Positions 30,681 to 64,000 of a stretch of DNA of 64,000 nt are shown here, in pieces. Where the stretch lies: NCBI GenBank assembly GCA_963924555.1, contig OZ004584.1, positions 9,019,327 to 9,083,326 on the forward strand, read 5' to 3'. A model generated the notes under the pieces. The model ran no database searches, was not told the origin of the DNA, and worked only from the letters and a program-made list of their open reading frames with translations. The DNA is from Crambe crambe (Eukaryota > Porifera > Demospongiae > Poecilosclerida > Crambeidae). The number at the start of each line of letters is the position of its first letter. The first letter of the stretch is position 1. The translations under genes were made by a program, and so were the position numbers.

Positions 30681-30685
30681 TTGAT

Positions 30686-33965: not shown

Positions 33966-33969
33966 TTTT

Positions 33970-35765: not shown

Positions 35766-36015
35766 TAGAAGGGATGACTAGGGCTAGATGCAACTCGGAA
35801 GGGATGACTAGAGCTAGATTCAACTTGGAAGGGATGTCTAGGGCTAGATGCAACTTGGAAGGGATGTCTAGGGCTAAATGCAACTCAGAAGGGATGACTA
35901 GGGCTAGATGCAACTCGGAAGGGATGACTAGGGCTAGATGCAACTCGGAAGGGATGACTAGGGCTAGATGCAACTTGGAAGGGATGATTAGGGCAAGATG
36001 CAACTCGGAAGGGCT
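35766..36015 (+). repeat. 30-bp repeat containing CTAGGGCTAG
   Basis: About eight copies of GAAGGGATGACTAGGGCTAG plus ATGCAACTCG. The unit embeds a telomere-like CTAGGGCTAG. Open on both strands because the period is a multiple of 3. Confidence 0.9.
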
Positions 36016-36024
36016 AGATTTCAA

Positions 36025-36475
36025 AGTATATAACCTACATGGCTAAATTAGGTGCCCCGGGTTAATACAGGTTGAGGTTATAAACCTACATGGCTAAATT
36101 AGGTGCCCCCGGGTTAATACAGGTTGAGGTTATAAACCTACATGGCTAAATTAGGTGCCCCCGGGTTAATACAGGTTGAGGTTATAAACCTACATGGCTA
36201 AATTAGGTGCCCCCGGGTTAATACAGGTTGAGGTTATAAACCTACATGGCTAAATTAGGTGCCCCCGGGTTAATACAGGTTGAGGTTATAAACCTACATG
36301 GCTAAATTAGGTGCCCCCGGGTTAATACAGGTTGAGGTTATAAACCTACATGGCTAAATTAGGTGCCCCCGGGTTAATACAGGTTGAGGTTATAAACCTA
36401 CATGGCTAAATTAGGTGCCCCCGGGTTAATACAGGTTGAGGTTATAAACCTACATGGCTAAATTAGGTGCCCCTG
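36025..36475 (+). repeat. Second 52-bp repeat family
   Basis: About nine near-identical copies of ACCTACATGGCTAAATTAGG, then TGCCCCCGGGTTAATACAGG, then TTGAGGTTATAA. Confidence 0.92.
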
Positions 36476-36509
36476 GGTTAAGACCTCAACCTACAGGTTA
36501 AGGAGATAA

Positions 36510-38760: not shown

Positions 38761-39494
38761 GGTCAAAATCGGCCCGAAGGGCAAATGTACACCCCCTGGG
38801 GGATCTATAGTGCTCATGGGGGCAAGGTTAAATGTCCTGGGGGGATTTTATTCAGAGGTTATCCCCCATGCTTCTCAGGTTATCCCTCCTGACTGTTTTC
38901 TACCCATTCATGGCTATTTTTGGGGCCCCCTAGGTTTGATCAGGTTTGATCAGGTTTGATTATTGGTCGAAAACGACCATGGGGGCCTCGAATTTAGCCG
39001 TGAGGGCATTTTTTTAGTCCTAAGGGACGTTTTTTTAGCCATTAGGGCTCGATATTATCCATGAGGGATGCCATGAGGGCCTTGCTCAAAAGAAAATTGT
39101 AGTTTATCCCCCAAGGTTGGTAACCTGACCCCTGTGGCATCAAAACCCATCCCTCAACTCAAAATAAGACCAGTTTTTAGTCCTAAGGGCCGGGTTATGT
39201 TGCCACGAGGGATAACCGGGTGCTCATGAGGGCAAGGTTAAGGTAGCTTTAGGGATATTTCCCTCATGCTACCGAACCTGGCCCCCATGCTTATCAGGTT
39301 TGCCCTCAGGCTCGAAACCTAACCTCAGGTTAAACCTGAGGTTTCTTCAGTTTTCTTTAAATCCCTAGTTTTCGAGATCGATTTTGCCCTCAAGGGCCAA
39401 GGTTTCTCGGCATGGGGGCGATTTTTAGCCCTAAGGGAACCTAGGTTTCTTTAGGTTAGGTGAGGCAAAACCTCAGGCATCCCCGACTCCATAG

Positions 39495-42400: not shown

Positions 42401-45400
42401 TACACTTAAGTCCCTCAAGTCCATGCAAAGTCCCTAAAGGCCTGATAGAGATTACAAAAGTCCCTCAAGTCATGGTAATGCACAAGAAGTTGTGGCCACG
42501 CCTTCCCAAAGCACATCAAACTCCACCCCTCAACCACCAGCAAGTGTATAGCTAGGAGGGATGTCCAGCCAAAAGTATCTAAATTTCTAGTCCTAATCGA
42601 GAGGAAAAATTTTTTATAATTGAATTGTGAGACTTGATTTTAAATATAAAGAAATTGTGAGAATGATTGATTACATTAGAACTGTTTTTTGTGAGAATGA
42701 TTGATTAGTCGAAATATCTCTTTAGGATTGAGTATTCTTCTTCGGAATAGAGTCGTCTCTTTTTTATCTTTCCCTCCCGGCTTGCACGTCTCGGTGAATA
42801 TCCTTCATGGATCCTTCCTGGATATTCTGGGACCTTGAAATTTCAGATACTTCTAGGAGGACAATTGGTGGCCCCCATGGATTCTGAGAGGACAATTGGT
42901 GACCCCCATGGGCCAGATATATCATCCCTCCTAGCTATGACCTTACCTTGCACATCTCAGTGGATATCCTTCATGGTTTCGTATTCGATCCTTCCTGGAT
43001 ATTCTGGGACTTTGAAATTTCAGCTCCTTCTTGGAGGACAATTGGTGGCCCCCATGGATTCTTGGAGGACAATTGGTGGCCCCCATGGATCCTGAGAGGA
43101 CAATTGGTGACCCCCATGGATTCTGGGAGGACAATTGGTGACCCCCATGGGCCAGATATATCATCCCTCCTAGCTATGACCTTACCTTTCCCTCCTGGCT
43201 TGCACATCTCAGTGAATATCCTTCATGGTTTCGTATTCGATCCTTCCTGGATATTCTGGGACTTTGAAATTTCAGCTCCTTCTTGGAGGACAATTGGTGG
43301 CCCCCATGGATTCTTGGAGGACAATTGGTGGCCCCCATGGATCCTGAGAGGACAATTGGTGACCCCCATGGATTCTGGGAGGACAATTGGTGACCCCCCA
43401 TGGGCCAGATATATCATCCCTCCTAGCTATGACCTTACCTTTCCCTCCTGGCTTGCACATCTCAGTGAATATCCTTCATGGTTTCGTATTCGATCCTTCC
43501 TGGATATTCTGGGACTTTGAAATTTCAGCTCCTTCTTGGAGGACAATTGGTGGCCCCCATGGATTCTTGGAGGACAATTGGTGGCCCCCATGGATCCTGA
43601 GAGGACAATTGGTGACCCCCATCATCCCTCCTAGCTATGACCTTACCTTTCCCTCCTGGCTTGCACATCTCAGTGAATATCCTTCATGGTTTCATATTCG
43701 ATCCTTCCTGGATATTCTGGGACTTTGAAATTTCAGCTCCTTCTTGGAGGACAATTGGTGGCCCCCATGGATTCTTGGAGGACAATTGGTGGCCCCCATG
43801 GATCCTGAGAGGACAATTGGTGACCCCCATGGATTCTGGGAGGACAATTGGTGATCCCCCATGGGCCAGATATATCATCCCTCCTAGCTATGACCTTACC
43901 TTTCCCTCCTGGCTTGCACGTCTCAGTGAATATCCTTCATGGTTTCGTATTCGATCCTTCCTGGATATTCTGGGACTTTGAAATTTCAGATACTTCTAGG
44001 AGGACAATTGGTGGCCCCCATGGATTCTGAGAGGACAATTGGTGACCAGATATATCATCCCTCCTAGCTATGACCTTACCTTTCCCTCCTGGCTTGCATA
44101 TCTCAGTGAATATCCTTCATGGTTTCGTATTCGATCCTTCCTGGATATTCTGGGACTTTGAAATTTCAGCTCCTTCTTGGAGGACAATTGGTGGCCCCCA
44201 TGGATTCTTGGAGGACAATTGGTGGCCCCCATGGATCCTGAGAGGACAATTGGTGACCCCCATGGATTCTGGGAGGACAATTGGTGATCCCCCATGGGCC
44301 AGATATATCATCCCTCCTAGCTATGACCTTACCTTTCCCTCCTGGCTTGCACATCTCAGTGAATATCCTTCATGGTTTCGTATTCGATCCTTCCTGCATA
44401 TTCTGGGACTTTGAAATTTCAGATACTTCTAGGAGGACAATTGGTGGCCCCCATGGATTCTGAGAGGACAATTGGTGACCAGATATATCATCCCTCCTAG
44501 CTATGACCTTACCTTTCCCTCCTGGCTTGCACGTCTCAGTGAATATCCTTCATGGTTTCATAGAAGGGATGACTAGGGCTAGATGCAACTCGGAAGGGAT
44601 GACTAGAGCTAGATTCAACTTGGAAGGGATGTCTAGGGCTAGATGCAACTTGGAAGGGATGTCTAGGGCTAAATGCAACTCAGAAGGGATGACTAGGGCT
44701 AGATGCAACTCGGAAGGGATGACTAGGGCTAGATGCAACTCGGAAGGGATGACTAGGGCTAGATGCAACTTGGAAGGGATGATTAGGGCAAGATGCAACT
44801 CGGAAGGGCTAGATTTCAAAGTATATAACCTACATGGCTAAATTAGGTGCCCCGGGTTAATACAGGTTGAGGTTATAAACCTACATGGCTAAATTAGGTG
44901 CCCCCGGGTTAATACAGGTTGAGGTTATAAACCTACATGGCTAAATTAGGTGCCCCCGGGTTAATACAGGTTGAGGTTATAAACCTACATGGCTAAATTA
45001 GGTGCCCCCGGGTTAATACAGGTTGAGGTTATAAACCTACATGGCTAAATTAGGTGCCCCCGGGTTAATACAGGTTGAGGTTATAAACCTACATGGCTAA
45101 ATTAGGTGCCCCCGGGTTAATACAGGTTGAGGTTATAAACCTACATGGCTAAATTAGGTGCCCCCGGGTTAATACAGGTTGAGGTTATAAACCTACATGG
45201 CTAAATTAGGTGCCCCCGGGTTAATACAGGTTGAGGTTATAAACCTACATGGCTAAATTAGGTGCCCCTGGGTTAAGACCTCAACCTACAGGTTAAGGAG
45301 ATAAGCCCTCAGATTTCTTCAGGTTTCTTCAGGTTAGGTTCAGGTTAGGTTAGGTTGAGGTTAGAGGTCCAAATCGGCCCGAAGGGCATATGTACACCCC

Positions 45401-48289
45401 CTAGGGGATCTCTATGGCACATGGGGGCAGGGTTAGCTGTCCTGGGGGCAATTTCATCTGGATTACCACGAAATTATCCCTCATGCTTCTCAGGTTATCC
45501 CTCCTGACTGTTTTCCACCCATTCAGGTTTCTTCAGGTTTCTTCAGGTTAGGTTAGGTTGAGGTTAGGTTGAGGTTAGAGGTCCAAATCGGCCCTAAGGG
45601 CATATGTACACCCCCTAGGGGATCTCTATGGTACATGAGGGCAGGGTTAGCTGTCCTGGGGGCATTTTCATCCGGACTACCACGAGGTTATCCCCCATGC
45701 CTCTCGGGTTATCCCTCCTGACTGTTTTCCACCCATTCAGGTTTCTTCAGGTTTCTTCAGGTTTCTTCAGGTTAGGTTAGGTTGAGGTTAGGTTGAGGTT
45801 AGAGGTCCAAATCGGCCTGAAGGGCATATGTACACCCCCTAGGGGATCTCTATGGAACATGAGGGCAGGGTTAGCTGTCCTGGGGGCATTTTCATCCGGA
45901 CTACCACGAAGTTATCCCTCATGCTTCTCAGGTTATCCCTCCTGACTGTTTTCCACCCATTCAGGTTTCTTCAGGTTTCTTCAGGTTTCTTCAGGTTAGG
46001 TTAGGTTGAGGTTAGGTTGAGGTTAGAGGTCCAAATCGGCCCTAAGGGCATATGTACACCCCCTAGGGGATCTCTATGGCACATGGGAGCAGGGTTAGCT
46101 GTCCTGGGGGCAATTTCATCTGGATTACCACGAAATTATCCCTCATGCTTCTCAGGTTATCCCTCCTGACTGTTTTCCACCCATTCAGGTTTCTTCAGGT
46201 TTCTTCAGGTTAGGTTAGGTTGAGGTTAGGTTGAGGTTAGAGGTCCAAATCGGCCCTAAGGGCATATGTACACCCCCTAGGGGATCTCTATGGCACATGG
46301 GGGCAGGGTTAGCTGTCCTGGGGGCAATTTCATCTGGATTACCACGAAATTATCCCTCATGCTTCTCAGGTTATCCCTCCTGACTGTTTTCCACCCATTC
46401 AGGTTTCTTCAGGTTTCTTCAGGTTTCTTCAGGTTAGGTTAGGTTGAGGTTAGGTTGAGGTTAGAGGTCCAAATCGGCCCTAAGGGCATATGTACACCCC
46501 CTAGGGGATCTCTATGGTACATGAGGGCAGGGTTAGCTGTCCTGGGGGCATTTTCATCCGGACTACCACGAGGTTATCCCCCATGCCTCTCGGGTTATCC
46601 CTCCTGACTGTTTTCCACCCTTTCAGGTTTCTTCAGGTTTCTTCAGGTTTCTTCAGGTTAGGTTAGGTTGAGGTTAGGTTGAGGTTAGAGGTCCAAATCG
46701 GCCTGAAGGGCATATGTACACCCCCTAGGGGATCTCTATGGCACATGAGGGCAGGATTAGCTGTCCTGGGGGCATTTTCATCCGGACTACCACGAGGTTA
46801 TCCCTCATGCTTCTCAGGTTATCCCTCCTGACTGTTTTCCACCCATTCAGGTTTCTTCAGGTTTCTTCAGGTTTCTTCAGGTTAGGTTAGGTTGAGGTTA
46901 GGTTGAGGTTAGAGGTCCAAATCGGCCCTAAGGGCATATGTACACCCCCTAGGGGATCTCTATGGCACATGGGGGCAGGGTTAGCTGTCCTGGGGGCAAT
47001 TTCATCTGGATTACCACGAAATTATCCCTCATGCTTCTCAGGTTATCCCTCCTGACTGTTTTCCACCCATTCAGGTTTCTTCAGGTTTCTTCAGGTTAGG
47101 TTAGGTTGAGGTTAGGTTGAGGTTAGAGGTCCAAATCGGCCCTAAGGGCATATGTACACCCCCTAGGGGATCTCTATGGCACATGGGGGCAGGGTTAGCT
47201 GTCCTGGGGGCAATTTCATCTGGATTACCACGAAATTATCCCTCATGCTTCTCAGGTTATCCCTCCTGACTGTTTTCCACCCATTCAGGTTTCTTCAGGT
47301 TTCTTCAGGTTTCTTCAGGTTAGGTTAGGTTGAGGTTAGGTTGAGGTTAGAGGTCCAAATCGGCCCTAAGGGCATATGTACACCCCCTAGGGGATCTCTA
47401 TGGTACATGAGGGCAGGGTTAACTGTCCTGGGGGCATTTTCATCTGGATTACCACGAAATTATCCCTCATGCTTCTCAGGTTATCCCTCCTGACTGTTTT
47501 CCACCCATTCAGGTTTCTTCAGGTTAGGTTCAGGTTAGGTTAGGTTGAGGTTAGAGGTCAAAATCGGCCCGAAGGGCAAATGTACACCCCCTGGGGGATC
47601 TATAGTGCTCATGGGGGCAAGGTTAAATGTCCTGGGGGGATTTTATTCAGAGGTTATCCCCCATGCTTCTCAGGTTATCCCTCCTGACTGTTTTCTACCC
47701 ATTCATGGCTATTTTTGGGGCCCCCTAGGTTTGATCAGGTTTGATCAGGTTTGATTATTGGTCGAAAACGACCATGGGGGCCTCGAATTTAGCCGTGAGG
47801 GCATTTTTTTAGTCCTAAGGGACGTTTTTTTAGCCATTAGGGCTCGATATTATCCATGAGGGATGCCATGAGGGCCTTGCTCAAAAGAAAATTGTAGTTT
47901 ATCCCCCAAGGTTGGTAACCTGACCCCTGTGGCATCAAAACCCATCCCTCAACTCAAAATAAGACCAGTTTTTAGTCCTAAGGGCCGGGTTATGTTGCCA
48001 CGAGGGATAACCGGGTGCTCATGAGGGCAAGGTTAAGGTAGCTTTAGGGATATTTCCCTCATGCTACCGAACCTGGCCCCCATGCTTATCAGGTTTGCCC
48101 TCAGGCTCGAAACCTAACCTCAGGTTAAACCTGAGGTTTCTTCAGTTTTCTTTAAATCCCTAGTTTTCGAGATCGATTTTGCCCTCAAGGGCCAAGGTTT
48201 CTCGGCATGGGGGCGATTTTTAGCCCTAAGGGAACCTAGGTTTCTTTAGGTTAGGTGAGGCAAAACCTCAGGCATCCCCGACTCCATAG
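39495..48289 (+). repeat. Subtelomeric macrosatellite unit, copy 2 (8,795 bp)
   Basis: Exact offset of 8,795 bp from copy 1 throughout (for example the ORF start moves from 31632 to 40427). The junction with copy 1 reads CCATAG|CTAGGGGCATGG, so a single telomere-like hexamer separates the copies. Confidence 0.95.
40427..40816 (+). CDS. 129-residue ORF of the subtelomeric unit, copy 2
   Basis: Identical protein to the copy at 31632-32021, with the same start, flanks and downstream ATCAATCATTCTCAC duplication. Identity follows from recent duplication of the whole unit and is not by itself evidence of selection. Confidence 0.45.
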   Translation: MSTSQPTNRPATLKRLSKRKSFTVCTHTSSTHVVPFRYKKLWPRLPKAHQTPPPAKKRRLYSEEEYSILKRYFDIGGERSKVAKLSECADFLREYQRDMQFEGKDTGQDQKHDKAEQVTANQQFFLFKM

Positions 48290-51200
48290 CTAGGGGCATG
48301 GAGAAGGATCCCTCACCATCCCTCATATATATAATATGATCCCTTATATTCATATACTTGAGTGTTTTATCCCTCAAATTCGCAAATTTGAGTCTTTTTT
48401 CCCCTTATGGTCATATACTTGGAGGATTTTACCCTTAAGTCAACCTCAACTTCATGGATAAATCTTATCTCGATTTAGGGGTAAAATATCCATGAGGTTA
48501 GGTTTCTTTAACCTGGGTTGAGGTTTCCAGAGGTAAAATAGCCATGAGGTTATGTATTGTTAACCTGGGTTGAGGTTTCCAGAGGTAAAATAGCCATGAG
48601 GTTATGTCCTGTTAACCTGGGTTGAGGTTTCCAGAGGTAAAATAGCCATGAGGTTATGTCTTGTTAACCTGGGTTGAGGTTTCCAGAGGTAAAATAGCCA
48701 TGAGGTTATGTCCTGTTAACCTGGGTTGAGGTTTCCAGAGGTAAAATAGCCATGAGGTTATGTCTTGTTAACCTGGGTTGAGGTTTCCAGAGGTAAAATA
48801 GCCATGAGGTTATCCAACGTTAACCTGGGTTGAGGTTTTCAGAGGTAAAATAGCCATGAGGTTTTGTTTCGTTAACAGGGGTTGAGGTAAAGTATCCATG
48901 AGGTTAGTTAAGTATTTATGAAGTCCCTCAAGTCACGGTAATGCACAGTAGATGTCCCTCAAGTCTATTCCTACACTTTGAAGTATTACCAAGTACACTT
49001 AAGTCCCTCAAGTATAGATAAAGACATTCAAAGTCCCTCAAGGCCAGATAGAGATTACGGAAGTCCCTCAAGTCATGGTAATGCACAGTAGATGTCCCTC
49101 AAGTCTATTCCTACACTTTGAAGTATTACGAAGTACACTTAAGTCCCTCAAGTCCATGCATCCGTAGCGCAGGCTGAAGGGGAAGTGCACGCCGTAGCCA
49201 GCCATATGACACACTCAGTAGATGTCCACCAGTCAACCTACCAACAGGCCGGCAACACTGAAAAGACTGTCGAAACGTAAGTCATTTACAGTCTGCACAC
49301 ACACTAGTTCAACTCACGTTGTACCATTCAGATACAAGAAGTTGTGGCCACGCCTTCCCAAAGCACATCAAACTCCACCCCCAGCAAAAAAGAGACGACT
49401 CTATTCCGAAGAAGAATACTCAATCCTAAAGAGATATTTCGACATTGGCGGAGAGAGGTCTAAAGTGGCAAAACTTTCTGAGTGTGCAGATTTCCTTAGA
49501 GAGTACCAGAGAGATATGCAGTTTGAGGGGAAGGACACAGGACAAGATCAAAAACATGATAAAGCAGAGCAAGTGACAGCAAACCAACAGTTCTTTTTAT
49601 TTAAAATGTAATCAATCATTCTCACAAAAAACAGTACTAATGTAATCAATCATTCTCACAATTTCTTTCTATTTCTAATCAAGTCTCACAATTCAAATTT
49701 TTCCTCTAGAAATTTAGATACTTTTTGCTGGACATCCCTCCTAGCTATACACTTATCTTTCCCTCCCGGCTTGCACGTCTCGGTGAATATCCTTCATGGA
49801 TCCTTCCTGGATATTCTGGGACTTTGAAATTTCAGATACTTCTAGGAGGACAATTGGTGGCCCCCATGGATTCTGAGAGGACAATTGGTGACCCCCATGG
49901 ATTCTGGGAGGACAATTGGTGACCCCCATGGGCCAGATATATCATCCCTCCTAGCTATGACCTTACCTTTCCCTCCTGGCTTGCACATCTCAGTGAATAT
50001 CCTTCATGGTTTCGTATTCGATCCTTCCTGGATATTCTGGGACTTTGAAATTTCAGCTCCTTCTTGGAGGATCCAGAGGTAAAATAGCCATGAGGTTATG
50101 TCTTGTTAACCTGGGTTGAGGTTTCCAGAGGTAAAATAGCCATGAAGTTATCCATCGTTAACTTGGGTTGAGGTTTCCAGAGGTAAAATAGCCATGAGGT
50201 TATGTCTTGTTAACCTGGGTTGAGGTTTCCAGAGGTAAAATAGCCATGAGGTTATCCAACGTTAACCTGGGTTGAGGTTTCCAGAGGTAAAATAGCCATG
50301 AGGTTATGTCTTGTTAATCTGGGTTGAGGTTTCCAGAGGTAAAATAGCCATGAGGTTATGTCTTGTTAACCTGGGTTGAAGTTTCCAGAGGTAAAATAGC
50401 CATGAGGTTATGTCTTGTTAATCTGGGTTGAGGTTTCCAGAGGTAAAATAGCCATGAGGTTATCCAATGTTAACCTGGGTTGAGGTTTCCAGAGGTAAAA
50501 TAGCCATGAGGTTATGTCTTGTTAACCTGGGTTGAGGTTTCCAGAGGTAAAATAGCCATGAGGTTATCCAACGTTAACCTGGGTTGAGGTTTCCAGAGGT
50601 AAAATAGCCATGAGGTTATGTCTTGTTAACCTGGGTTGAGGTAAAATAGCCATGAGGTTATCCAACGTTAACCTGGGTTGAGGTTTCCAGAGGTAAAATA
50701 GCCATGAGGTTATGTCTTGTTAATCTGGGTTGAGGTTTCCAGAGGTAAAATAGCCATGAGGTTATCCAATGTTAACCTGGGTTGAGGTTTCCAGAGGTAA
50801 AATAGCCATGAGGTTATGTCTTGTTAACCTGGGTTGAGGTTTCCAGAGGTAAAATAGCCATGAGGTTATCCAACGTTAACCTGGGTTGAGGTTTCCAGAG
50901 GTAAAATAGCCATGAGGTTATGTCTTGTTAACCTGGGTTGAGGTAAAATAGCCATGAGGTTATCCAACGTTAACCTGGGTTGAGGTTATCAGAGGTAAAA
51001 TAGCCATGAGGTTATGTCTTGTTAACCTGGGTTGAGGTTTTCAGAGGTAAAATAGCCATGAGGTTTTGTTTCGTTAACAGGGGTTGAGGTAAAGTATCCA
51101 TGAGGTTAGTTAAGTATTTATGAAGTCCCTCAAGTCATGGTAATGCACAGTAGATGTCCCTCAAGTCTATTCCTACATTTGGAAGTATTACCAAGTACAC

Positions 51201-54200
51201 TTAAGTCCCTCAAGTCCATGCAAAGTCCCTAAAGGCCTGATAGAGATTACAAAAGTCCCTCAAGTCATGGTAATGCACAAGAAGTTGTGGCCACGCCTTC
51301 CCAAAGCACATCAAACTCCACCCCTCAACCACCAGCAAGTGTATAGCTAGGAGGGATGTCCAGCCAAAAGTATCTAAATTTCTAGTCCTAATCGAGAGGA
51401 AAAATTTTTTATAATTGAATTGTGAGACTTGATTTTAAATATAAAGAAATTGTGAGAATGATTGATTACATTAGAACTGTTTTTTGTGAGAATGATTGAT
51501 TAGTCGAAATATCTCTTTAGGATTGAGTATTCTTCTTCGGAATAGAGTCGTCTCTTTTTTATCTTTCCCTCCCGGCTTGCACGTCTCGGTGAATATCCTT
51601 CATGGATCCTTCCTGGATATTCTGGGACCTTGAAATTTCAGATACTTCTAGGAGGACAATTGGTGGCCCCCATGGATTCTGAGAGGACAATTGGTGACCC
51701 CCATGGGCCAGATATATCATCCCTCCTAGCTATGACCTTACCTTGCACATCTCAGTGGATATCCTTCATGGTTTCGTATTCGATCCTTCCTGGATATTCT
51801 GGGACTTTGAAATTTCAGCTCCTTCTTGGAGGACAATTGGTGGCCCCCATGGATTCTTGGAGGACAATTGGTGGCCCCCATGGATCCTGAGAGGACAATT
51901 GGTGACCCCCATGGATTCTGGGAGGACAATTGGTGACCCCCATGGGCCAGATATATCATCCCTCCTAGCTATGACCTTACCTTTCCCTCCTGGCTTGCAC
52001 ATCTCAGTGAATATCCTTCATGGTTTCGTATTCGATCCTTCCTGGATATTCTGGGACTTTGAAATTTCAGCTCCTTCTTGGAGGACAATTGGTGGCCCCC
52101 ATGGATTCTTGGAGGACAATTGGTGGCCCCCATGGATCCTGAGAGGACAATTGGTGACCCCCATGGATTCTGGGAGGACAATTGGTGACCCCCCATGGGC
52201 CAGATATATCATCCCTCCTAGCTATGACCTTACCTTTCCCTCCTGGCTTGCACATCTCAGTGAATATCCTTCATGGTTTCGTATTCGATCCTTCCTGGAT
52301 ATTCTGGGACTTTGAAATTTCAGCTCCTTCTTGGAGGACAATTGGTGGCCCCCATGGATTCTTGGAGGACAATTGGTGGCCCCCATGGATCCTGAGAGGA
52401 CAATTGGTGACCCCCATCATCCCTCCTAGCTATGACCTTACCTTTCCCTCCTGGCTTGCACATCTCAGTGAATATCCTTCATGGTTTCATATTCGATCCT
52501 TCCTGGATATTCTGGGACTTTGAAATTTCAGCTCCTTCTTGGAGGACAATTGGTGGCCCCCATGGATTCTTGGAGGACAATTGGTGGCCCCCATGGATCC
52601 TGAGAGGACAATTGGTGACCCCCATGGATTCTGGGAGGACAATTGGTGATCCCCCATGGGCCAGATATATCATCCCTCCTAGCTATGACCTTACCTTTCC
52701 CTCCTGGCTTGCACGTCTCAGTGAATATCCTTCATGGTTTCGTATTCGATCCTTCCTGGATATTCTGGGACTTTGAAATTTCAGATACTTCTAGGAGGAC
52801 AATTGGTGGCCCCCATGGATTCTGAGAGGACAATTGGTGACCAGATATATCATCCCTCCTAGCTATGACCTTACCTTTCCCTCCTGGCTTGCATATCTCA
52901 GTGAATATCCTTCATGGTTTCGTATTCGATCCTTCCTGGATATTCTGGGACTTTGAAATTTCAGCTCCTTCTTGGAGGACAATTGGTGGCCCCCATGGAT
53001 TCTTGGAGGACAATTGGTGGCCCCCATGGATCCTGAGAGGACAATTGGTGACCCCCATGGATTCTGGGAGGACAATTGGTGATCCCCCATGGGCCAGATA
53101 TATCATCCCTCCTAGCTATGACCTTACCTTTCCCTCCTGGCTTGCACATCTCAGTGAATATCCTTCATGGTTTCGTATTCGATCCTTCCTGCATATTCTG
53201 GGACTTTGAAATTTCAGATACTTCTAGGAGGACAATTGGTGGCCCCCATGGATTCTGAGAGGACAATTGGTGACCAGATATATCATCCCTCCTAGCTATG
53301 ACCTTACCTTTCCCTCCTGGCTTGCACGTCTCAGTGAATATCCTTCATGGTTTCATAGAAGGGATGACTAGGGCTAGATGCAACTCGGAAGGGATGACTA
53401 GAGCTAGATTCAACTTGGAAGGGATGTCTAGGGCTAGATGCAACTTGGAAGGGATGTCTAGGGCTAAATGCAACTCAGAAGGGATGACTAGGGCTAGATG
53501 CAACTCGGAAGGGATGACTAGGGCTAGATGCAACTCGGAAGGGATGACTAGGGCTAGATGCAACTTGGAAGGGATGATTAGGGCAAGATGCAACTCGGAA
53601 GGGCTAGATTTCAAAGTATATAACCTACATGGCTAAATTAGGTGCCCCGGGTTAATACAGGTTGAGGTTATAAACCTACATGGCTAAATTAGGTGCCCCC
53701 GGGTTAATACAGGTTGAGGTTATAAACCTACATGGCTAAATTAGGTGCCCCCGGGTTAATACAGGTTGAGGTTATAAACCTACATGGCTAAATTAGGTGC
53801 CCCCGGGTTAATACAGGTTGAGGTTATAAACCTACATGGCTAAATTAGGTGCCCCCGGGTTAATACAGGTTGAGGTTATAAACCTACATGGCTAAATTAG
53901 GTGCCCCCGGGTTAATACAGGTTGAGGTTATAAACCTACATGGCTAAATTAGGTGCCCCCGGGTTAATACAGGTTGAGGTTATAAACCTACATGGCTAAA
54001 TTAGGTGCCCCCGGGTTAATACAGGTTGAGGTTATAAACCTACATGGCTAAATTAGGTGCCCCTGGGTTAAGACCTCAACCTACAGGTTAAGGAGATAAG
54101 CCCTCAGATTTCTTCAGGTTTCTTCAGGTTAGGTTCAGGTTAGGTTAGGTTGAGGTTAGAGGTCCAAATCGGCCCGAAGGGCATATGTACACCCCCTAGG

Positions 54201-57084
54201 GGATCTCTATGGCACATGGGGGCAGGGTTAGCTGTCCTGGGGGCAATTTCATCTGGATTACCACGAAATTATCCCTCATGCTTCTCAGGTTATCCCTCCT
54301 GACTGTTTTCCACCCATTCAGGTTTCTTCAGGTTTCTTCAGGTTAGGTTAGGTTGAGGTTAGGTTGAGGTTAGAGGTCCAAATCGGCCCTAAGGGCATAT
54401 GTACACCCCCTAGGGGATCTCTATGGTACATGAGGGCAGGGTTAGCTGTCCTGGGGGCATTTTCATCCGGACTACCACGAGGTTATCCCCCATGCCTCTC
54501 GGGTTATCCCTCCTGACTGTTTTCCACCCATTCAGGTTTCTTCAGGTTTCTTCAGGTTTCTTCAGGTTAGGTTAGGTTGAGGTTAGGTTGAGGTTAGAGG
54601 TCCAAATCGGCCTGAAGGGCATATGTACACCCCCTAGGGGATCTCTATGGAACATGAGGGCAGGGTTAGCTGTCCTGGGGGCATTTTCATCCGGACTACC
54701 ACGAAGTTATCCCTCATGCTTCTCAGGTTATCCCTCCTGACTGTTTTCCACCCATTCAGGTTTCTTCAGGTTTCTTCAGGTTTCTTCAGGTTAGGTTAGG
54801 TTGAGGTTAGGTTGAGGTTAGAGGTCCAAATCGGCCCTAAGGGCATATGTACACCCCCTAGGGGATCTCTATGGCACATGGGAGCAGGGTTAGCTGTCCT
54901 GGGGGCAATTTCATCTGGATTACCACGAAATTATCCCTCATGCTTCTCAGGTTATCCCTCCTGACTGTTTTCCACCCATTCAGGTTTCTTCAGGTTTCTT
55001 CAGGTTAGGTTAGGTTGAGGTTAGGTTGAGGTTAGAGGTCCAAATCGGCCCTAAGGGCATATGTACACCCCCTAGGGGATCTCTATGGCACATGGGGGCA
55101 GGGTTAGCTGTCCTGGGGGCAATTTCATCTGGATTACCACGAAATTATCCCTCATGCTTCTCAGGTTATCCCTCCTGACTGTTTTCCACCCATTCAGGTT
55201 TCTTCAGGTTTCTTCAGGTTTCTTCAGGTTAGGTTAGGTTGAGGTTAGGTTGAGGTTAGAGGTCCAAATCGGCCCTAAGGGCATATGTACACCCCCTAGG
55301 GGATCTCTATGGTACATGAGGGCAGGGTTAGCTGTCCTGGGGGCATTTTCATCCGGACTACCACGAGGTTATCCCCCATGCCTCTCGGGTTATCCCTCCT
55401 GACTGTTTTCCACCCTTTCAGGTTTCTTCAGGTTTCTTCAGGTTTCTTCAGGTTAGGTTAGGTTGAGGTTAGGTTGAGGTTAGAGGTCCAAATCGGCCTG
55501 AAGGGCATATGTACACCCCCTAGGGGATCTCTATGGCACATGAGGGCAGGATTAGCTGTCCTGGGGGCATTTTCATCCGGACTACCACGAGGTTATCCCT
55601 CATGCTTCTCAGGTTATCCCTCCTGACTGTTTTCCACCCATTCAGGTTTCTTCAGGTTTCTTCAGGTTTCTTCAGGTTAGGTTAGGTTGAGGTTAGGTTG
55701 AGGTTAGAGGTCCAAATCGGCCCTAAGGGCATATGTACACCCCCTAGGGGATCTCTATGGCACATGGGGGCAGGGTTAGCTGTCCTGGGGGCAATTTCAT
55801 CTGGATTACCACGAAATTATCCCTCATGCTTCTCAGGTTATCCCTCCTGACTGTTTTCCACCCATTCAGGTTTCTTCAGGTTTCTTCAGGTTAGGTTAGG
55901 TTGAGGTTAGGTTGAGGTTAGAGGTCCAAATCGGCCCTAAGGGCATATGTACACCCCCTAGGGGATCTCTATGGCACATGGGGGCAGGGTTAGCTGTCCT
56001 GGGGGCAATTTCATCTGGATTACCACGAAATTATCCCTCATGCTTCTCAGGTTATCCCTCCTGACTGTTTTCCACCCATTCAGGTTTCTTCAGGTTTCTT
56101 CAGGTTTCTTCAGGTTAGGTTAGGTTGAGGTTAGGTTGAGGTTAGAGGTCCAAATCGGCCCTAAGGGCATATGTACACCCCCTAGGGGATCTCTATGGTA
56201 CATGAGGGCAGGGTTAACTGTCCTGGGGGCATTTTCATCTGGATTACCACGAAATTATCCCTCATGCTTCTCAGGTTATCCCTCCTGACTGTTTTCCACC
56301 CATTCAGGTTTCTTCAGGTTAGGTTCAGGTTAGGTTAGGTTGAGGTTAGAGGTCAAAATCGGCCCGAAGGGCAAATGTACACCCCCTGGGGGATCTATAG
56401 TGCTCATGGGGGCAAGGTTAAATGTCCTGGGGGGATTTTATTCAGAGGTTATCCCCCATGCTTCTCAGGTTATCCCTCCTGACTGTTTTCTACCCATTCA
56501 TGGCTATTTTTGGGGCCCCCTAGGTTTGATCAGGTTTGATCAGGTTTGATTATTGGTCGAAAACGACCATGGGGGCCTCGAATTTAGCCGTGAGGGCATT
56601 TTTTTAGTCCTAAGGGACGTTTTTTTAGCCATTAGGGCTCGATATTATCCATGAGGGATGCCATGAGGGCCTTGCTCAAAAGAAAATTGTAGTTTATCCC
56701 CCAAGGTTGGTAACCTGACCCCTGTGGCATCAAAACCCATCCCTCAACTCAAAATAAGACCAGTTTTTAGTCCTAAGGGCCGGGTTATGTTGCCACGAGG
56801 GATAACCGGGTGCTCATGAGGGCAAGGTTAAGGTAGCTTTAGGGATATTTCCCTCATGCTACCGAACCTGGCCCCCATGCTTATCAGGTTTGCCCTCAGG
56901 CTCGAAACCTAACCTCAGGTTAAACCTGAGGTTTCTTCAGTTTTCTTTAAATCCCTAGTTTTCGAGATCGATTTTGCCCTCAAGGGCCAAGGTTTCTCGG
57001 CATGGGGGCGATTTTTAGCCCTAAGGGAACCTAGGTTTCTTTAGGTTAGGTGAGGCAAAACCTCAGGCATCCCCGACTCCATAG
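48290..57084 (+). repeat. Subtelomeric macrosatellite unit, copy 3 (8,795 bp), joined to the terminal array
   Basis: Same offset again; identical to copy 2 as far as read. It ends CCATAG exactly as the others do and runs into (CTAGGG)n, so the terminal array begins at the position where another unit would have started. Confidence 0.95.
49222..49611 (+). CDS. 129-residue ORF of the subtelomeric unit, copy 3
   Basis: Identical protein to the copies at 31632 and 40427. This copy is about 7.5 kb from the terminal CTAGGG array, so any transcript would be subject to telomere position effects if they exist in this organism. Confidence 0.45.
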   Translation: MSTSQPTNRPATLKRLSKRKSFTVCTHTSSTHVVPFRYKKLWPRLPKAHQTPPPAKKRRLYSEEEYSILKRYFDIGGERSKVAKLSECADFLREYQRDMQFEGKDTGQDQKHDKAEQVTANQQFFLFKM

Positions 57085-60000
57085 CTAGGGCTAGGGCTAG
57101 GGCTAGGGCTAGGGCTAGGGCTAGGGCTAGGGCTAGGGCTAGGGCTAGGGCTAGGGCTAGGGCTAGGGCTAGGGCTAGGGCTAGGGCTAGGGCTAGGGCT
57201 AGGGCTAGGGCTAGGGCTAGGGCTAGGGCTAGGGCTAGGGCTAGGGCTAGGGCTAGGGCTAGGGCTAGGGCTAGGGCTAGGGCTAGGGCTAGGGCTAGGG
57301 CTAGGGCTAGGGCTAGGGCTAGGGCTAGGGCTAGGGCTAGGGCTAGGGCTAGGGCTAGGGCTAGGGCTAGGGCTAGGGCTAGGGCTAGGGCTAGGGCTAG
57401 GGCTAGGGCTAGGGCTAGGGCTAGGGCTAGGGCTAGGGCTAGGGCTAGGGCTAGGGCTAGGGCTAGGGCTAGGGCTAGGGCTAGGGCTAGGGCTAGGGCT
57501 AGGGCTAGGGCTAGGGCTAGGGCTAGGGCTAGGGCTAGGGCTAGGGCTAGGGCTAGGGCTAGGGCTAGGGCTAGGGCTAGGGCTAGGGCTAGGGCTAGGG
57601 CTAGGGCTAGGGCTAGGGCTAGGGCTAGGGCTAGGGCTAGGGCTAGGGCTAGGGCTAGGGCTAGGGCTAGGGCTAGGGCTAGGGCTAGGGCTAGGGCTAG
57701 GGCTAGGGCTAGGGCTAGGGCTAGGGCTAGGGCTAGGGCTAGGGCTAGGGCTAGGGCTAGGGCTAGGGCTAGGGCTAGGGCTAGGGCTAGGGCTAGGGCT
57801 AGGGCTAGGGCTAGGGCTAGGGCTAGGGCTAGGGCTAGGGCTAGGGCTAGGGCTAGGGCTAGGGCTAGGGCTAGGGCTAGGGCTAGGGCTAGGGCTAGGG
57901 CTAGGGCTAGGGCTAGGGCTAGGGCTAGGGCTAGGGCTAGGGCTAGGGCTAGGGCTAGGGCTAGGGCTAGGGCTAGGGCTAGGGCTAGGGCTAGGGCTAG
58001 GGCTAGGGCTAGGGCTAGGGCTAGGGCTAGGGCTAGGGCTAGGGCTAGGGCTAGGGCTAGGGCTAGGGCTAGGGCTAGGGCTAGGGCTAGGGCTAGGGCT
58101 AGGGCTAGGGCTAGGGCTAGGGCTAGGGCTAGGGCTAGGGCTAGGGCTAGGGCTAGGGCTAGGGCTAGGGCTAGGGCTAGGGCTAGGGCTAGGGCTAGGG
58201 CTAGGGCTAGGGCTAGGGCTAGGGCTAGGGCTAGGGCTAGGGCTAGGGCTAGGGCTAGGGCTAGGGCTAGGGCTAGGGCTAGGGCTAGGGCTAGGGCTAG
58301 GGCTAGGGCTAGGGCTAGGGCTAGGGCTAGGGCTAGGGCTAGGGCTAGGGCTAGGGCTAGGGCTAGGGCTAGGGCTAGGGCTAGGGCTAGGGCTAGGGCT
58401 AGGGCTAGGGCTAGGGCTAGGGCTAGGGCTAGGGCTAGGGCTAGGGCTAGGGCTAGGGCTAGGGCTAGGGCTAGGGCTAGGGCTAGGGCTAGGGCTAGGG
58501 CTAGGGCTAGGGCTAGGGCTAGGGCTAGGGCTAGGGCTAGGGCTAGGGCTAGGGCTAGGGCTAGGGCTAGGGCTAGGGCTAGGGCTAGGGCTAGGGCTAG
58601 GGCTAGGGCTAGGGCTAGGGCTAGGGCTAGGGCTAGGGCTAGGGCTAGGGCTAGGGCTAGGGCTAGGGCTAGGGCTAGGGCTAGGGCTAGGGCTAGGGCT
58701 AGGGCTAGGGCTAGGGCTAGGGCTAGGGCTAGGGCTAGGGCTAGGGCTAGGGCTAGGGCTAGGGCTAGGGCTAGGGCTAGGGCTAGGGCTAGGGCTAGGG
58801 CTAGGGCTAGGGCTAGGGCTAGGGCTAGGGCTAGGGCTAGGGCTAGGGCTAGGGCTAGGGCTAGGGCTAGGGCTAGGGCTAGGGCTAGGGCTAGGGCTAG
58901 GGCTAGGGCTAGGGCTAGGGCTAGGGCTAGGGCTAGGGCTAGGGCTAGGGCTAGGGCTAGGGCTAGGGCTAGGGCTAGGGCTAGGGCTAGGGCTAGGGCT
59001 AGGGCTAGGGCTAGGGCTAGGGCTAGGGCTAGGGCTAGGGCTAGGGCTAGGGCTAGGGCTAGGGCTAGGGCTAGGGCTAGGGCTAGGGCTAGGGCTAGGG
59101 CTAGGGCTAGGGCTAGGGCTAGGGCTAGGGCTAGGGCTAGGGCTAGGGCTAGGGCTAGGGCTAGGGCTAGGGCTAGGGCTAGGGCTAGGGCTAGGGCTAG
59201 GGCTAGGGCTAGGGCTAGGGCTAGGGCTAGGGCTAGGGCTAGGGCTAGGGCTAGGGCTAGGGCTAGGGCTAGGGCTAGGGCTAGGGCTAGGGCTAGGGCT
59301 AGGGCTAGGGCTAGGGCTAGGGCTAGGGCTAGGGCTAGGGCTAGGGCTAGGGCTAGGGCTAGGGCTAGGGCTAGGGCTAGGGCTAGGGCTAGGGCTAGGG
59401 CTAGGGCTAGGGCTAGGGCTAGGGCTAGGGCTAGGGCTAGGGCTAGGGCTAGGGCTAGGGCTAGGGCTAGGGCTAGGGCTAGGGCTAGGGCTAGGGCTAG
59501 GGCTAGGGCTAGGGCTAGGGCTAGGGCTAGGGCTAGGGCTAGGGCTAGGGCTAGGGCTAGGGCTAGGGCTAGGGCTAGGGCTAGGGCTAGGGCTAGGGCT
59601 AGGGCTAGGGCTAGGGCTAGGGCTAGGGCTAGGGCTAGGGCTAGGGCTAGGGCTAGGGCTAGGGCTAGGGCTAGGGCTAGGGCTAGGGCTAGGGCTAGGG
59701 CTAGGGCTAGGGCTAGGGCTAGGGCTAGGGCTAGGGCTAGGGCTAGGGCTAGGGCTAGGGCTAGGGCTAGGGCTAGGGCTAGGGCTAGGGCTAGGGCTAG
59801 GGCTAGGGCTAGGGCTAGGGCTAGGGCTAGGGCTAGGGCTAGGGCTAGGGCTAGGGCTAGGGCTAGGGCTAGGGCTAGGGCTAGGGCTAGGGCTAGGGCT
59901 AGGGCTAGGGCTAGGGCTAGGGCTAGGGCTAGGGCTAGGGCTAGGGCTAGGGCTAGGGCTAGGGCTAGGGCTAGGGCTAGGGCTAGGGCTAGGGCTAGGG

Positions 60001-63000
60001 CTAGGGCTAGGGCTAGGGCTAGGGCTAGGGCTAGGGCTAGGGCTAGGGCTAGGGCTAGGGCTAGGGCTAGGGCTAGGGCTAGGGCTAGGGCTAGGGCTAG
60101 GGCTAGGGCTAGGGCTAGGGCTAGGGCTAGGGCTAGGGCTAGGGCTAGGGCTAGGGCTAGGGCTAGGGCTAGGGCTAGGGCTAGGGCTAGGGCTAGGGCT
60201 AGGGCTAGGGCTAGGGCTAGGGCTAGGGCTAGGGCTAGGGCTAGGGCTAGGGCTAGGGCTAGGGCTAGGGCTAGGGCTAGGGCTAGGGCTAGGGCTAGGG
60301 CTAGGGCTAGGGCTAGGGCTAGGGCTAGGGCTAGGGCTAGGGCTAGGGCTAGGGCTAGGGCTAGGGCTAGGGCTAGGGCTAGGGCTAGGGCTAGGGCTAG
60401 GGCTAGGGCTAGGGCTAGGGCTAGGGCTAGGGCTAGGGCTAGGGCTAGGGCTAGGGCTAGGGCTAGGGCTAGGGCTAGGGCTAGGGCTAGGGCTAGGGCT
60501 AGGGCTAGGGCTAGGGCTAGGGCTAGGGCTAGGGCTAGGGCTAGGGCTAGGGCTAGGGCTAGGGCTAGGGCTAGGGCTAGGGCTAGGGCTAGGGCTAGGG
60601 CTAGGGCTAGGGCTAGGGCTAGGGCTAGGGCTAGGGCTAGGGCTAGGGCTAGGGCTAGGGCTAGGGCTAGGGCTAGGGCTAGGGCTAGGGCTAGGGCTAG
60701 GGCTAGGGCTAGGGCTAGGGCTAGGGCTAGGGCTAGGGCTAGGGCTAGGGCTAGGGCTAGGGCTAGGGCTAGGGCTAGGGCTAGGGCTAGGGCTAGGGCT
60801 AGGGCTAGGGCTAGGGCTAGGGCTAGGGCTAGGGCTAGGGCTAGGGCTAGGGCTAGGGCTAGGGCTAGGGCTAGGGCTAGGGCTAGGGCTAGGGCTAGGG
60901 CTAGGGCTAGGGCTAGGGCTAGGGCTAGGGCTAGGGCTAGGGCTAGGGCTAGGGCTAGGGCTAGGGCTAGGGCTAGGGCTAGGGCTAGGGCTAGGGCTAG
61001 GGCTAGGGCTAGGGCTAGGGCTAGGGCTAGGGCTAGGGCTAGGGCTAGGGCTAGGGCTAGGGCTAGGGCTAGGGCTAGGGCTAGGGCTAGGGCTAGGGCT
61101 AGGGCTAGGGCTAGGGCTAGGGCTAGGGCTAGGGCTAGGGCTAGGGCTAGGGCTAGGGCTAGGGCTAGGGCTAGGGCTAGGGCTAGGGCTAGGGCTAGGG
61201 CTAGGGCTAGGGCTAGGGCTAGGGCTAGGGCTAGGGCTAGGGCTAGGGCTAGGGCTAGGGCTAGGGCTAGGGCTAGGGCTAGGGCTAGGGCTAGGGCTAG
61301 GGCTAGGGCTAGGGCTAGGGCTAGGGCTAGGGCTAGGGCTAGGGCTAGGGCTAGGGCTAGGGCTAGGGCTAGGGCTAGGGCTAGGGCTAGGGCTAGGGCT
61401 AGGGCTAGGGCTAGGGCTAGGGCTAGGGCTAGGGCTAGGGCTAGGGCTAGGGCTAGGGCTAGGGCTAGGGCTAGGGCTAGGGCTAGGGCTAGGGCTAGGG
61501 CTAGGGCTAGGGCTAGGGCTAGGGCTAGGGCTAGGGCTAGGGCTAGGGCTAGGGCTAGGGCTAGGGCTAGGGCTAGGGCTAGGGCTAGGGCTAGGGCTAG
61601 GGCTAGGGCTAGGGCTAGGGCTAGGGCTAGGGCTAGGGCTAGGGCTAGGGCTAGGGCTAGGGCTAGGGCTAGGGCTAGGGCTAGGGCTAGGGCTAGGGCT
61701 AGGGCTAGGGCTAGGGCTAGGGCTAGGGCTAGGGCTAGGGCTAGGGCTAGGGCTAGGGCTAGGGCTAGGGCTAGGGCTAGGGCTAGGGCTAGGGCTAGGG
61801 CTAGGGCTAGGGCTAGGGCTAGGGCTAGGGCTAGGGCTAGGGCTAGGGCTAGGGCTAGGGCTAGGGCTAGGGCTAGGGCTAGGGCTAGGGCTAGGGCTAG
61901 GGCTAGGGCTAGGGCTAGGGCTAGGGCTAGGGCTAGGGCTAGGGCTAGGGCTAGGGCTAGGGCTAGGGCTAGGGCTAGGGCTAGGGCTAGGGCTAGGGCT
62001 AGGGCTAGGGCTAGGGCTAGGGCTAGGGCTAGGGCTAGGGCTAGGGCTAGGGCTAGGGCTAGGGCTAGGGCTAGGGCTAGGGCTAGGGCTAGGGCTAGGG
62101 CTAGGGCTAGGGCTAGGGCTAGGGCTAGGGCTAGGGCTAGGGCTAGGGCTAGGGCTAGGGCTAGGGCTAGGGCTAGGGCTAGGGCTAGGGCTAGGGCTAG
62201 GGCTAGGGCTAGGGCTAGGGCTAGGGCTAGGGCTAGGGCTAGGGCTAGGGCTAGGGCTAGGGCTAGGGCTAGGGCTAGGGCTAGGGCTAGGGCTAGGGCT
62301 AGGGCTAGGGCTAGGGCTAGGGCTAGGGCTAGGGCTAGGGCTAGGGCTAGGGCTAGGGCTAGGGCTAGGGCTAGGGCTAGGGCTAGGGCTAGGGCTAGGG
62401 CTAGGGCTAGGGCTAGGGCTAGGGCTAGGGCTAGGGCTAGGGCTAGGGCTAGGGCTAGGGCTAGGGCTAGGGCTAGGGCTAGGGCTAGGGCTAGGGCTAG
62501 GGCTAGGGCTAGGGCTAGGGCTAGGGCTAGGGCTAGGGCTAGGGCTAGGGCTAGGGCTAGGGCTAGGGCTAGGGCTAGGGCTAGGGCTAGGGCTAGGGCT
62601 AGGGCTAGGGCTAGGGCTAGGGCTAGGGCTAGGGCTAGGGCTAGGGCTAGGGCTAGGGCTAGGGCTAGGGCTAGGGCTAGGGCTAGGGCTAGGGCTAGGG
62701 CTAGGGCTAGGGCTAGGGCTAGGGCTAGGGCTAGGGCTAGGGCTAGGGCTAGGGCTAGGGCTAGGGCTAGGGCTAGGGCTAGGGCTAGGGCTAGGGCTAG
62801 GGCTAGGGCTAGGGCTAGGGCTAGGGCTAGGGCTAGGGCTAGGGCTAGGGCTAGGGCTAGGGCTAGGGCTAGGGCTAGGGCTAGGGCTAGGGCTAGGGCT
62901 AGGGCTAGGGCTAGGGCTAGGGCTAGGGCTAGGCTAGGGCTAGGGCTAGGGCTAGGGCTAGGGCTAGGGCTAGGGCTAGGGCTAGGGCTAGGGCTAGGGC

Positions 63001-63990
63001 TAGGGCTAGGCTAGGGCTAGGGCTAGGGCTAGGGCTAGGGCTAGGGCTAGGGCTAGGGCTAGGGCTAGGGCTAGGGCTAGGGCTAGGGCTAGGGCTAGGG
63101 CTAGGGCTAGGGCTAGGGCTAGGGCTAGGGCTAGGGCTAGGGCTAGGGCTAGGGCTAGGGCTAGGGCTAGGGCTAGGGCTAGGGCTAGGGCTAGGGCTAG
63201 GGCTAGGGCTAGGGCTAGGGCTAGGGCTAGGGCTAGGGCTAGGGCTAGGGCTAGGGCTAGGGCTAGGGCTAGGGCTAGGGCTAGGGCTAGGGCTAGGGCT
63301 AGGGCTAGGGCTAGGGCTAGGGCTAGGGCTAGGGCTAGGGCTAGGGCTAGGGCTAGGGCTAGGGCTAGGGCTAGGGCTAGGGCTAGGGCTAGGGCTAGGG
63401 CTAGGGCTAGGGCTAGGGCTAGGGCTAGGGCTAGGGCTAGGGCTAGGGCTAGGGCTAGGGCTAGGGCTAGGGCTAGGGCTAGGGCTAGGGCTAGGGCTAG
63501 GGCTAGGGCTAGGGCTAGGGCTAGGGCTAGGGCTAGGGCTAGGGCTAGGGGCTAGGGCTAGGGCTAGGGCTAGGGCTAGGGCTAGGGCTAGGGCTAGGGC
63601 TAGGGCTAGGGCTAGGGCTAGGGCTAGGGCTAGGGCTAGGGCTAGGGCTAGGGCTAGGGCTAGGGCTAGGGCTAGGGCTAGGGCTAGGGCTAGGGCTAGG
63701 GCTAGGGCTAGGGCTAGGGCTAGGGCTAGGGCTAGGGCTAGGGCTAGGGCTAGGGCTAGGGCTAGGGCTAGGGCTAGGGCTAGGGCTAGGGCTAGGGCTA
63801 GGGCTAGGGCTAGGGCTAGGGCTAGGGCTAGGGCTAGGGCTAGGGCTAGGGGCTAGGGCTAGGGCTAGGGGCTAGGGCTAGGGCTAGGGCTAGGGCTAGG
63901 GCTAGGGCTAGGGCTAGGGCTAGGGCTAGGGCTAGGGCTAGGGCTAGGGCTAGGGCTAGGAGCTAGGGCTAGGAGGCTAGGGGCTAGAGC
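57085..63990 (+). repeat. (CTAGGG)n terminal array, about 6.9 kb, probable telomere
   Basis: Starts directly after CCATAG of macrosatellite copy 3 and runs to the window end with the G-rich strand 5'->3' toward the end, the orientation expected at a right chromosome end. It is perfect to about 62930, roughly 970 units. After that, occasional units lose or gain one G (62933, 63009, 63550, 63850, 63870). The last 45 bases are irregular (AGGAGCTAGGG, GCTAGAGCTAGTATAAGA). TTAGGG is the usual animal telomere; CTAGGG is a one-base variant. A satellite rather than a telomere remains possible. Confidence 0.85.
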
Positions 63991-64000
63991 TAGTATAAGA

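What the first reader, a model, noticed from the sequence alone, without database searches (positions are those of the whole stretch)
57085..63990. Possible non-canonical animal telomere made of CTAGGG
About 970 perfect CTAGGG units, correctly oriented and running to the end of the sequence, follow a subtelomere-like array. TTAGGG is the usual animal telomere. A whole telomere of CTAGGG would require a changed telomerase RNA template and telomere-binding proteins that accept a C. Known: CTAGGG occurs as a variant inside human telomeres and can form a G-quadruplex with G-C-G-C tetrads. Each junction here also contains the palindrome CTAG, so G-strand overhangs could pair with each other.
Basis: partly seen in the sequence, partly recalled or inferred. 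Interest (0 to 1): 0.92.

Follow-up and report, generated by a model that had tools for sequence, protein, structure and literature searches.

The report
Sponge chromosomes capped with CTAGGG repeats
The chromosome ends of the Mediterranean sponge Crambe crambe are made of CTAGGG repeats instead of the usual animal TTAGGG, which most likely means that the RNA copied to build its chromosome caps has changed by one letter.

Summary
The window is the right end of a 9,083,326-bp contig. Contig sizes match the published assembly of Crambe crambe, a demosponge. The array is 974 perfect CTAGGG units, then near-perfect repeats to 63,955 and a noisy last 45 bases.

Of the 36 ends of the 18 chromosome-scale contigs, 28 finish in correctly oriented CTAGGG. 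Three more hold their own array behind a head-to-head junction, making 31. (TTAGGG)3 occurs in only 3 tracts of the held 143 Mb. Fourteen arrays hold 14,044 CTAGGG units and 2 TTAGGG units. A 20-bp subtelomeric satellite is capped by CTAGGG at six phases, and one chromosome carries a full array on a 16-nt stub of a subtelomeric element, as templated addition to broken ends would leave.

TERT exons and two POT1-domain genes are present. The telomerase RNA was not found, so the changed template is inferred. Sponges are reported to have TTAGGG. My literature searches showed no CTAGGG telomere. Verdict: real; a new variant of the telomerase-type telomere.

The parts
57085..62928 (+). telomere: 974 perfect CTAGGG units, G-strand towards the contig end
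   Evidence: contig end
62929..63955 (+). telomere, near-perfect part: runs of 12, 90, 50, 3 and 14 CTAGGG units separated by 1-5 bases
63956..64000 (+). degraded last bases of the contig, probably the noisy end of the outermost reads (inference)
   Evidence: in 14 arrays 31 of 55 interrupting fragments lie in the outermost tenth
48290..57084 (.). subtelomeric unit B, copy 3, 8,795 bp, directly inside the telomere
39495..48289 (.). subtelomeric unit B, copy 2, identical to copy 3
30700..39494 (.). subtelomeric unit B, copy 1, one mismatch to copies 2 and 3
30688..30705 (+). interstitial (CTAGGG)3 at the junction of the class A subtelomere and the first B unit; reads as the remnant of an older chromosome end (inference)
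29656..30686 (.). 20-bp satellite (51.5 copies) of the class A subtelomere; its relatives on other chromosomes are capped directly by CTAGGG
25332..30639 (.). class A subtelomeric region, related to DNA near the telomere at seven other left ends

Best explanation
The array is the telomere of chromosome 4 of the sponge Crambe crambe, and CTAGGG has replaced TTAGGG as the telomeric repeat of this genome. Shown: it is terminal and correctly oriented at 31 of 36 assembled ends, almost uniform, TTAGGG is nearly absent, and it sits directly on several different non-telomeric breakpoints. Inferred: telomerase makes it by copying an RNA template such as 5'-CUAGCCCUAG-3', one base per repeat different from the usual animal 5'-CUAACCCUAA-3', and POT1-like and other end-binding proteins tolerate or require the C at position 1.
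For: Contig-terminal arrays in the right orientation at 15 of 18 left and 13 of 18 right ends, plus three own arrays behind head-to-head junctions. Forty thousand (CTAGGG)4 word matches (19,099 + 21,790, overlapping) against 5 matches of (TTAGGG)3. 14,044 CTAGGG units in 14 arrays with 55 interrupting fragments, 47 of them in the innermost or outermost tenth, and 2 TTAGGG units. The 20-bp satellite is capped at six phases in nine junctions (read by eye). C17 left carries an array on a 16-nt stub of unit B. TERT RNA-binding domain over cut-off at one locus, all ten solved-structure matches of its first exon are TERT. Two POT1 domains over cut-off. Subtelomeres shared between chromosomes next to the arrays.
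Against: The telomerase RNA was not found: RF00024 gave 0, and 55 of 74 places with one template lettering gave no convincing candidate. TERT was not shown to be intact: the first TRBD match has one TAG inside, probably an intron; catalytic motifs A, B' and C were not seen in the 6.3 kb read; TERT_C matches are below cut-off and lie 35 and 72 kb away. The TRF family was not found, in a search that rang nowhere. Five of 36 ends show no array in what was read. No raw reads, FISH or Bal31.
Confidence: 0.87

Rival explanations
1. CTAGGG is terminal but is kept by recombination (ALT-like copying of a variant that spread to the ends), with telomerase lost or silent.
For: The telomerase RNA was not found and the TERT gene was not shown to be intact. 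Subtelomeric blocks are shared between chromosomes, so ends do exchange DNA.
Against: Arrays sit directly on at least six different phases of a satellite and on a 16-nt stub, which asks for addition to non-telomeric DNA. Uniformity is near total, whereas PMC3919612 describes ALT lines with a large range of variants (abstract). A TERT RNA-binding domain and two POT1 domains are present.
Confidence: 0.07
2. CTAGGG is a subterminal satellite; the real telomere is a different repeat beyond the last assembled base.
For: The assembly stops inside the arrays at 28 ends, so the very last bases of the chromosomes are not proven. The last 45 bases of the window are not clean repeat.
Against: No second repeat appears at the outer edge of the 28 ends; the interruptions there are mostly extra or missing G or C. 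The printed coverage is 459-fold HiFi, so an outer repeat should have been caught at some end. (TTAGGG)3 exists in only 3 tracts.
Confidence: 0.04
3. Base-calling or consensus artefact: the real sequence is TTAGGG.
For: Telomeric repeats are known to be miscalled by some nanopore base-callers (recalled, not searched).
Against: The data are PacBio HiFi with QV 58.1. The same hexamer is seen on both orientations. The same assembly reads TTAGGG in 3 interior tracts and inside one array, and CTAGGG also as a short interior tract.
Confidence: 0.01

Closest known systems
Canonical animal telomere (TTAGGG)n made by telomerase, stated for three sponge species in PMC5793068 (citing Sakai 2007; passages seen)
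   Same: Terminal hexamer array with GGG, right orientation, kilobases long; TERT RNA-binding domain and POT1 domains in the genome
   Different: Position 1 is C in place of T in all but a trace of the units
(CTAGGG)n variant inside human telomeres (PMC3919612, passages; Mendez-Bermudez 2009 only as cited there)
   Same: The same hexamer; there it is one of the position-1 variants that telomerase can produce, and it diminishes TRF1 and TRF2 binding
   Different: In humans a minor variant among TTAGGG; here the main repeat of the assembled telomeres
Other one-base telomere changes, such as nematode TTAGGC (PMC10844300 and PMC12134996, passages)
   Same: A lineage departs from TTAGGG by one base of the hexamer
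   Different: Position 6 in nematodes, position 1 here; no kinship of the two changes implied
Yeast Y' subtelomeric elements (recalled, no call)
   Same: Near-identical tandem subtelomeric units shared between ends, with a short telomeric tract at one junction
   Different: No sequence kinship tested; no helicase identified; the B|B junctions in the window carry no tract longer than one CTAGGG

Membership tests
telomerase-type eukaryotic telomere | short tandem G-rich repeat at the ends of most chromosomes, G-strand towards the end | tested here: met
   28 of 36 ends directly, 31 of 36 with arrays behind junctions
telomerase-type eukaryotic telomere | uniform unit, as from one template | tested here: met
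   14,044 units, 55 interrupting fragments in 14 arrays
telomerase-type eukaryotic telomere | repeats added directly to non-telomeric ends | tested here: met
   six satellite phases in nine junctions and a 16-nt stub of unit B, read by eye from printed junctions; the enzyme itself is inferred
telomerase-type eukaryotic telomere | TERT gene | tested here: inconclusive
   RNA-binding domain over cut-off; motif 1/2 exon by eye, its search weak; catalytic motifs A, B', C not seen in 6.3 kb; TERT_C below cut-off
telomerase-type eukaryotic telomere | telomerase RNA with matching template | tested here: inconclusive
   RF00024 gave 0, a model made from vertebrates; 55 of 74 places with one template lettering gave nothing above controls that reads as a telomerase RNA
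telomerase-type eukaryotic telomere | Bal31-sensitive terminal location and TRAP activity | not testable with these tools
   needs bench work
canonical animal TTAGGG telomere | TTAGGG is the terminal repeat | tested here: not met
   2 TTAGGG among 14,044 CTAGGG units; (TTAGGG)3 in 3 tracts of the genome
shelterin-type end protection | POT1 and TRF proteins | tested here: inconclusive
   two POT1 domains over cut-off; TRF 0, in a search that rang nowhere

The most novel reading that the evidence does not exclude
A sponge lineage fixed a one-base change in its telomerase RNA and rebuilt its end protection around it: its telomere proteins now require the C, and the self-complementary CTAG of every unit, or G-quadruplexes with G-C-G-C tetrads, take part in capping. 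What is a weakly TRF-bound variant in human telomeres would then be the normal telomere of an animal.
Probability: 0.25. Interest if true: 0.8.

Novelty: new variant of a known kind. Interest (0 to 1): 0.64.

Why it matters
TTAGGG is generally taken as the ancestral animal telomere (general knowledge), and a review states that three sponge species have exclusively TTAGGG (PMC5793068, passages). CTAGGG is known from human telomeres as a variant that diminishes TRF1 and TRF2 binding, and altered template repeats are described there as detrimental (PMC3919612, passages). An animal whose assembled telomeres are CTAGGG is a natural experiment on how a lineage survives such a switch, and makes the co-evolution of telomerase RNA, TERT, POT1 and double-strand binding proteins directly testable. 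In practice, TTAGGG probes and telomere finders will miss the telomeres of this species and perhaps of its relatives.

Tried and rejected
Telomerase RNA. RF00024 over the genome found 0, with 27 of 286 first-look candidates scored (after unanswered tries 32, 35, 40, 43). Pattern DCTAGCCCTAGCD gave 74 places, reversed control 12. I fetched 55 of the 74; left out were a 13-copy tandem on C12, a close pair on C8 and four of five members of a repeat on C14. Rfam at E up to 5 gave 7 matches in the 55, none of them a telomerase RNA. A home-made pseudoknot scan put the best candidate (33) below the best antisense control (36). A search for helices around the template gave one outlier, a 22-bp inverted repeat at C11:399154, which I read by eye as a transposon-like element. 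Pattern DCTAGCCCTAGD gave 346 places (reversed control 29), 100 of them listed, many in a subtelomeric 30-bp satellite; not followed. Other template letterings and lengths were not searched.

TERT completeness. The RVT_1 search was swamped by other reverse transcriptases (150 scored of 801 candidates). TERT_C gave only matches below cut-off.

Organism. The 18S rRNA search failed; the mitochondrial genes and printed assembly statistics served instead.

Rejected: base-call artefact, subterminal satellite (see rivals). Relatives could not be tested: I had no search over other sponge genomes, so the age of the switch is open.

Full report
Observation. The tract is real. One search finds 974 perfect CTAGGG units at 57,085-62,928, then runs of 12, 90, 50, 3 and 14 units to 63,955, and a degraded last 45 bases. 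The window lies at G000:C6:9019327-9083326 and the contig ends at 9,083,326, so the array is terminal in the assembly. It contains no TTAGGG.

Organism. Contig 119 is 19,532 bases and carries cox1 with seven TGA codons inside the frame; by eye it also holds nad6, nad3, nad4L and nad1, in an order I recall from demosponges. The genome note of Crambe crambe (PMC12166358; abstract, passages and section 5 seen) gives a longest scaffold of 9,683,886, an N50 of 7,656,483 and an N90 of 6,535,638 bases, 18 chromosomes and a 19.53-kb mitochondrial genome. These three lengths are exactly contigs C3, C11 and C19 here. The window should be the end of its chromosome 4 (9.08 Mb), since C6 is the only one of the 18 large contigs of that length. 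The held copy has 143,139,886 bases in 119 contigs against 143,197,480 bases in 124 scaffolds in print, so a little is missing.

Genome-wide test. I read both ends of the 18 chromosome-scale contigs (C1, C3, C5, C6, C8-C21). In the outermost 1,000 bases, 15 of 18 left ends are CCCTAG and 13 of 18 right ends CTAGGG, at 95-100% of the bases. Three more ends (C1 left, C10 right, C12 left) hold an own, correctly oriented array joined head to head to another array with other DNA beyond; the junction was read through at C12, while C1 and C10 were sampled in 100-base pieces. That makes 31 of 36. C1 right, C13 right, C17 right, C21 right (1 kb read each) and C15 left (10 kb read) showed no array. C1 right stops inside shared subtelomeric sequence, which fits an unfinished end; for the other four I have no explanation beyond incompleteness. 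Starts of 15 of the 101 smaller contigs were read and none begins with the repeat; their other ends were not read. Genome-wide, (CTAGGG)4 has 19,099 + 21,790 overlapping matches, (TTAGGG)3 has 5, in 3 tracts.

Array anatomy. I tokenised 14 arrays: 13 left ends fetched at 10 kb and the window. They measure 4.8-8.6 kb and hold 14,044 CTAGGG units with 55 interrupting fragments, some of which are only the cut last unit or boundary pieces. Of the 55, 16 lie in the innermost tenth and 31 in the outermost tenth. TTAGGG appears as two units in the inner half of C13 left. ATAGGG appears three times. Assembled lengths are lower bounds, since assemblies stop where reads stop (inference).

Evidence for direct addition. 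A 20-bp satellite lies under many of the arrays. In nine junctions, read by eye, it is cut and capped at six phases: CTA|GGG in C5, C11, C14 and C19 left; CATA|GGG in C17 left; TTGA|GGGG in C10 left; TTG|GGGG in the outer piece at C12; GATGC|CTAGGG in C18 left; GATGG|CTAGGG at the interior tract of the window, 30,688-30,705. Shared bases leave some cuts uncertain by one to three positions, and the four CTA|GGG cases may share ancestry, so I count phases, not events. C17 left is the most telling: satellite, a short CTAGGG tract, 16 nt of unit B, then a full array. The simplest reading is that unit B was joined to an old end, broke off, and the stub was capped anew. I take this as templated addition to broken ends; the step from sequence to telomerase is inference.

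Subtelomere. From 30,700 to 57,084 the window holds three 8,795-bp units; copies 2 and 3 are identical and copy 1 differs at one base. Unit B starts directly inside the telomere at C6 and C8 left, a shortened unit does so at C9 left, and a piece lies 2.9 kb inside at C13 left. The other class (window about 25.3-30.6 kb) is related to DNA near the telomere at C5, C10, C11, C14, C17, C18 and C19 left. C3 and C16 left showed no match over 200 bases to the window in that comparison.

Machinery. The Pfam TERT RNA-binding domain matches at one locus, C6:7555175-7555665, with 57.9 and 34.6 bits against a cut-off of 25, one TAG inside the first match, and no control genome ringing. All ten solved-structure matches of the first exon are TERT (best E 5e-4). 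An RT motif 1/2-like exon follows by eye, but its own search is weak: Internalin B ranks first (E 0.6) and TERT has E 0.76. Motifs A, B' and C were not seen in the 6.3 kb read. TERT_C matches below its cut-off (27) at 24.5 and 24.6 bits, 35 and 72 kb away on the same strand, in DNA about 86% identical between the two places over 378 and 273 bases; one of 14 control genomes rang below the cut-off too. I cannot say whether the gene is intact. Two POT1 domains pass the cut-off of 29, at 93.9 and 49.2 bits. The TRF family gave nothing, in a search that rang nowhere. The telomerase RNA was not found. PMC8480181 (passages and one section seen) reports telomerase RNAs in three sponges with an animal-type core, so one is expected here.

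Mechanism. Most likely telomerase reads a template changed at one base per repeat, such as 5'-CUAGCCCUAG-3' in place of 5'-CUAACCCUAA-3', and so adds CTAGGG. Near-total uniformity, the spread over 31 ends and the capping of unrelated breakpoints point to a template rather than to mutation of existing repeats. PMC3919612 reports that telomerase misincorporates at position 1 and that CTAGGG diminishes TRF1 and TRF2 binding (passages): a route by which the variant can appear, and a reason to expect adaptation of binding proteins. Self-pairing of CTAG and G-C-G-C quadruplexes were not tested.

Against known cases. PMC5793068 (passages) states that three sponge species have exclusively TTAGGG, citing Sakai 2007, and that telomerase activity was measured in two sponges. 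Searches: CTAGGG with telomere (58 papers, 40 listed); CTAGGG with sponge (15 of 15 listed); other letterings (208 papers, 30 listed); Crambe crambe with telomer (10 of 10 listed); motif surveys (42 papers, 20 listed); sponge telomeres (47 papers, 12 listed). None of the listings shows a CTAGGG telomere; I read only a few of these papers, in passages. The TeloBase paper text lacks CTAGGG, but its database and other online motif lists were out of reach, and an entry there is possible.

Verdict. It is a new variant of a known kind, not a new kind of chromosome end.

Noticed in passing
L020 (C12:1-10000) 7,629-7,790; C1 between 18.1 and 20.0 kb; C10 between 8,724.5 and 8,725.9 kb: Head-to-head telomere-telomere junctions, (CTAGGG)n meeting (CCCTAG)m, with other DNA beyond. 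The C12 junction is about 150 bp of mixed CCTAGG, which looks like a consensus blend, so an artefact is likelier than a real end fusion.
   Followed up: partly
30700-57084: Three 8,795-bp subtelomeric units with one mismatch in all, shared with other chromosome ends, Y'-like in layout. Each holds an identical 129-aa frame (31632, 40427, 49222); the copy tested has no Pfam match.
   Followed up: partly
L025 (C17:1-10000) 5834-5855: A 16-nt stub of unit B inside the inner part of the C17 left telomere, as if a broken end had been capped anew.
   Followed up: yes
36514-38910 and 45309-47525: A repeat of about 224 bp inside unit B is full of AGGTT/TTAGG runs; the window holds 169 TTAGG, none of them in the telomere. 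Chance or old degenerate telomere-like DNA.
   Followed up: no
35768-36013 and 44563-44808: A 30-bp satellite whose unit carries ACTAGGGCTAGA, a short telomere-like word that recurs in subtelomeric satellites of C1 and C3.
   Followed up: no
C6:7482697-7482834 and C6:7520328-7520462 (L122, L121): Two copies of a TERT C-terminal-like exon, about 86% identical in DNA, downstream of the TERT RNA-binding exons: a possible local duplication of part of TERT.
   Followed up: partly
C20:502097-502486 and C21:151856-152215: Two POT1-domain genes of unequal score (93.9 and 49.2 bits); one could have adapted to the new repeat.
   Followed up: no
2911-3585 (-): CAP (cysteine-rich secretory) domain frame that spans an exact 138-bp tandem duplication at 3311-3587.
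   Followed up: no
20663-21937 (-): Frame with a DUF4371 domain, by recall of a hAT-type transposase.
   Followed up: no
14285-14320: A run of 36 G.
   Followed up: no
L084 (C11:398804-399266): A 22-bp inverted repeat with about 67 bp between its arms, around a CTAGCCCTAGC word; by eye a small transposon-like element.
   Followed up: partly
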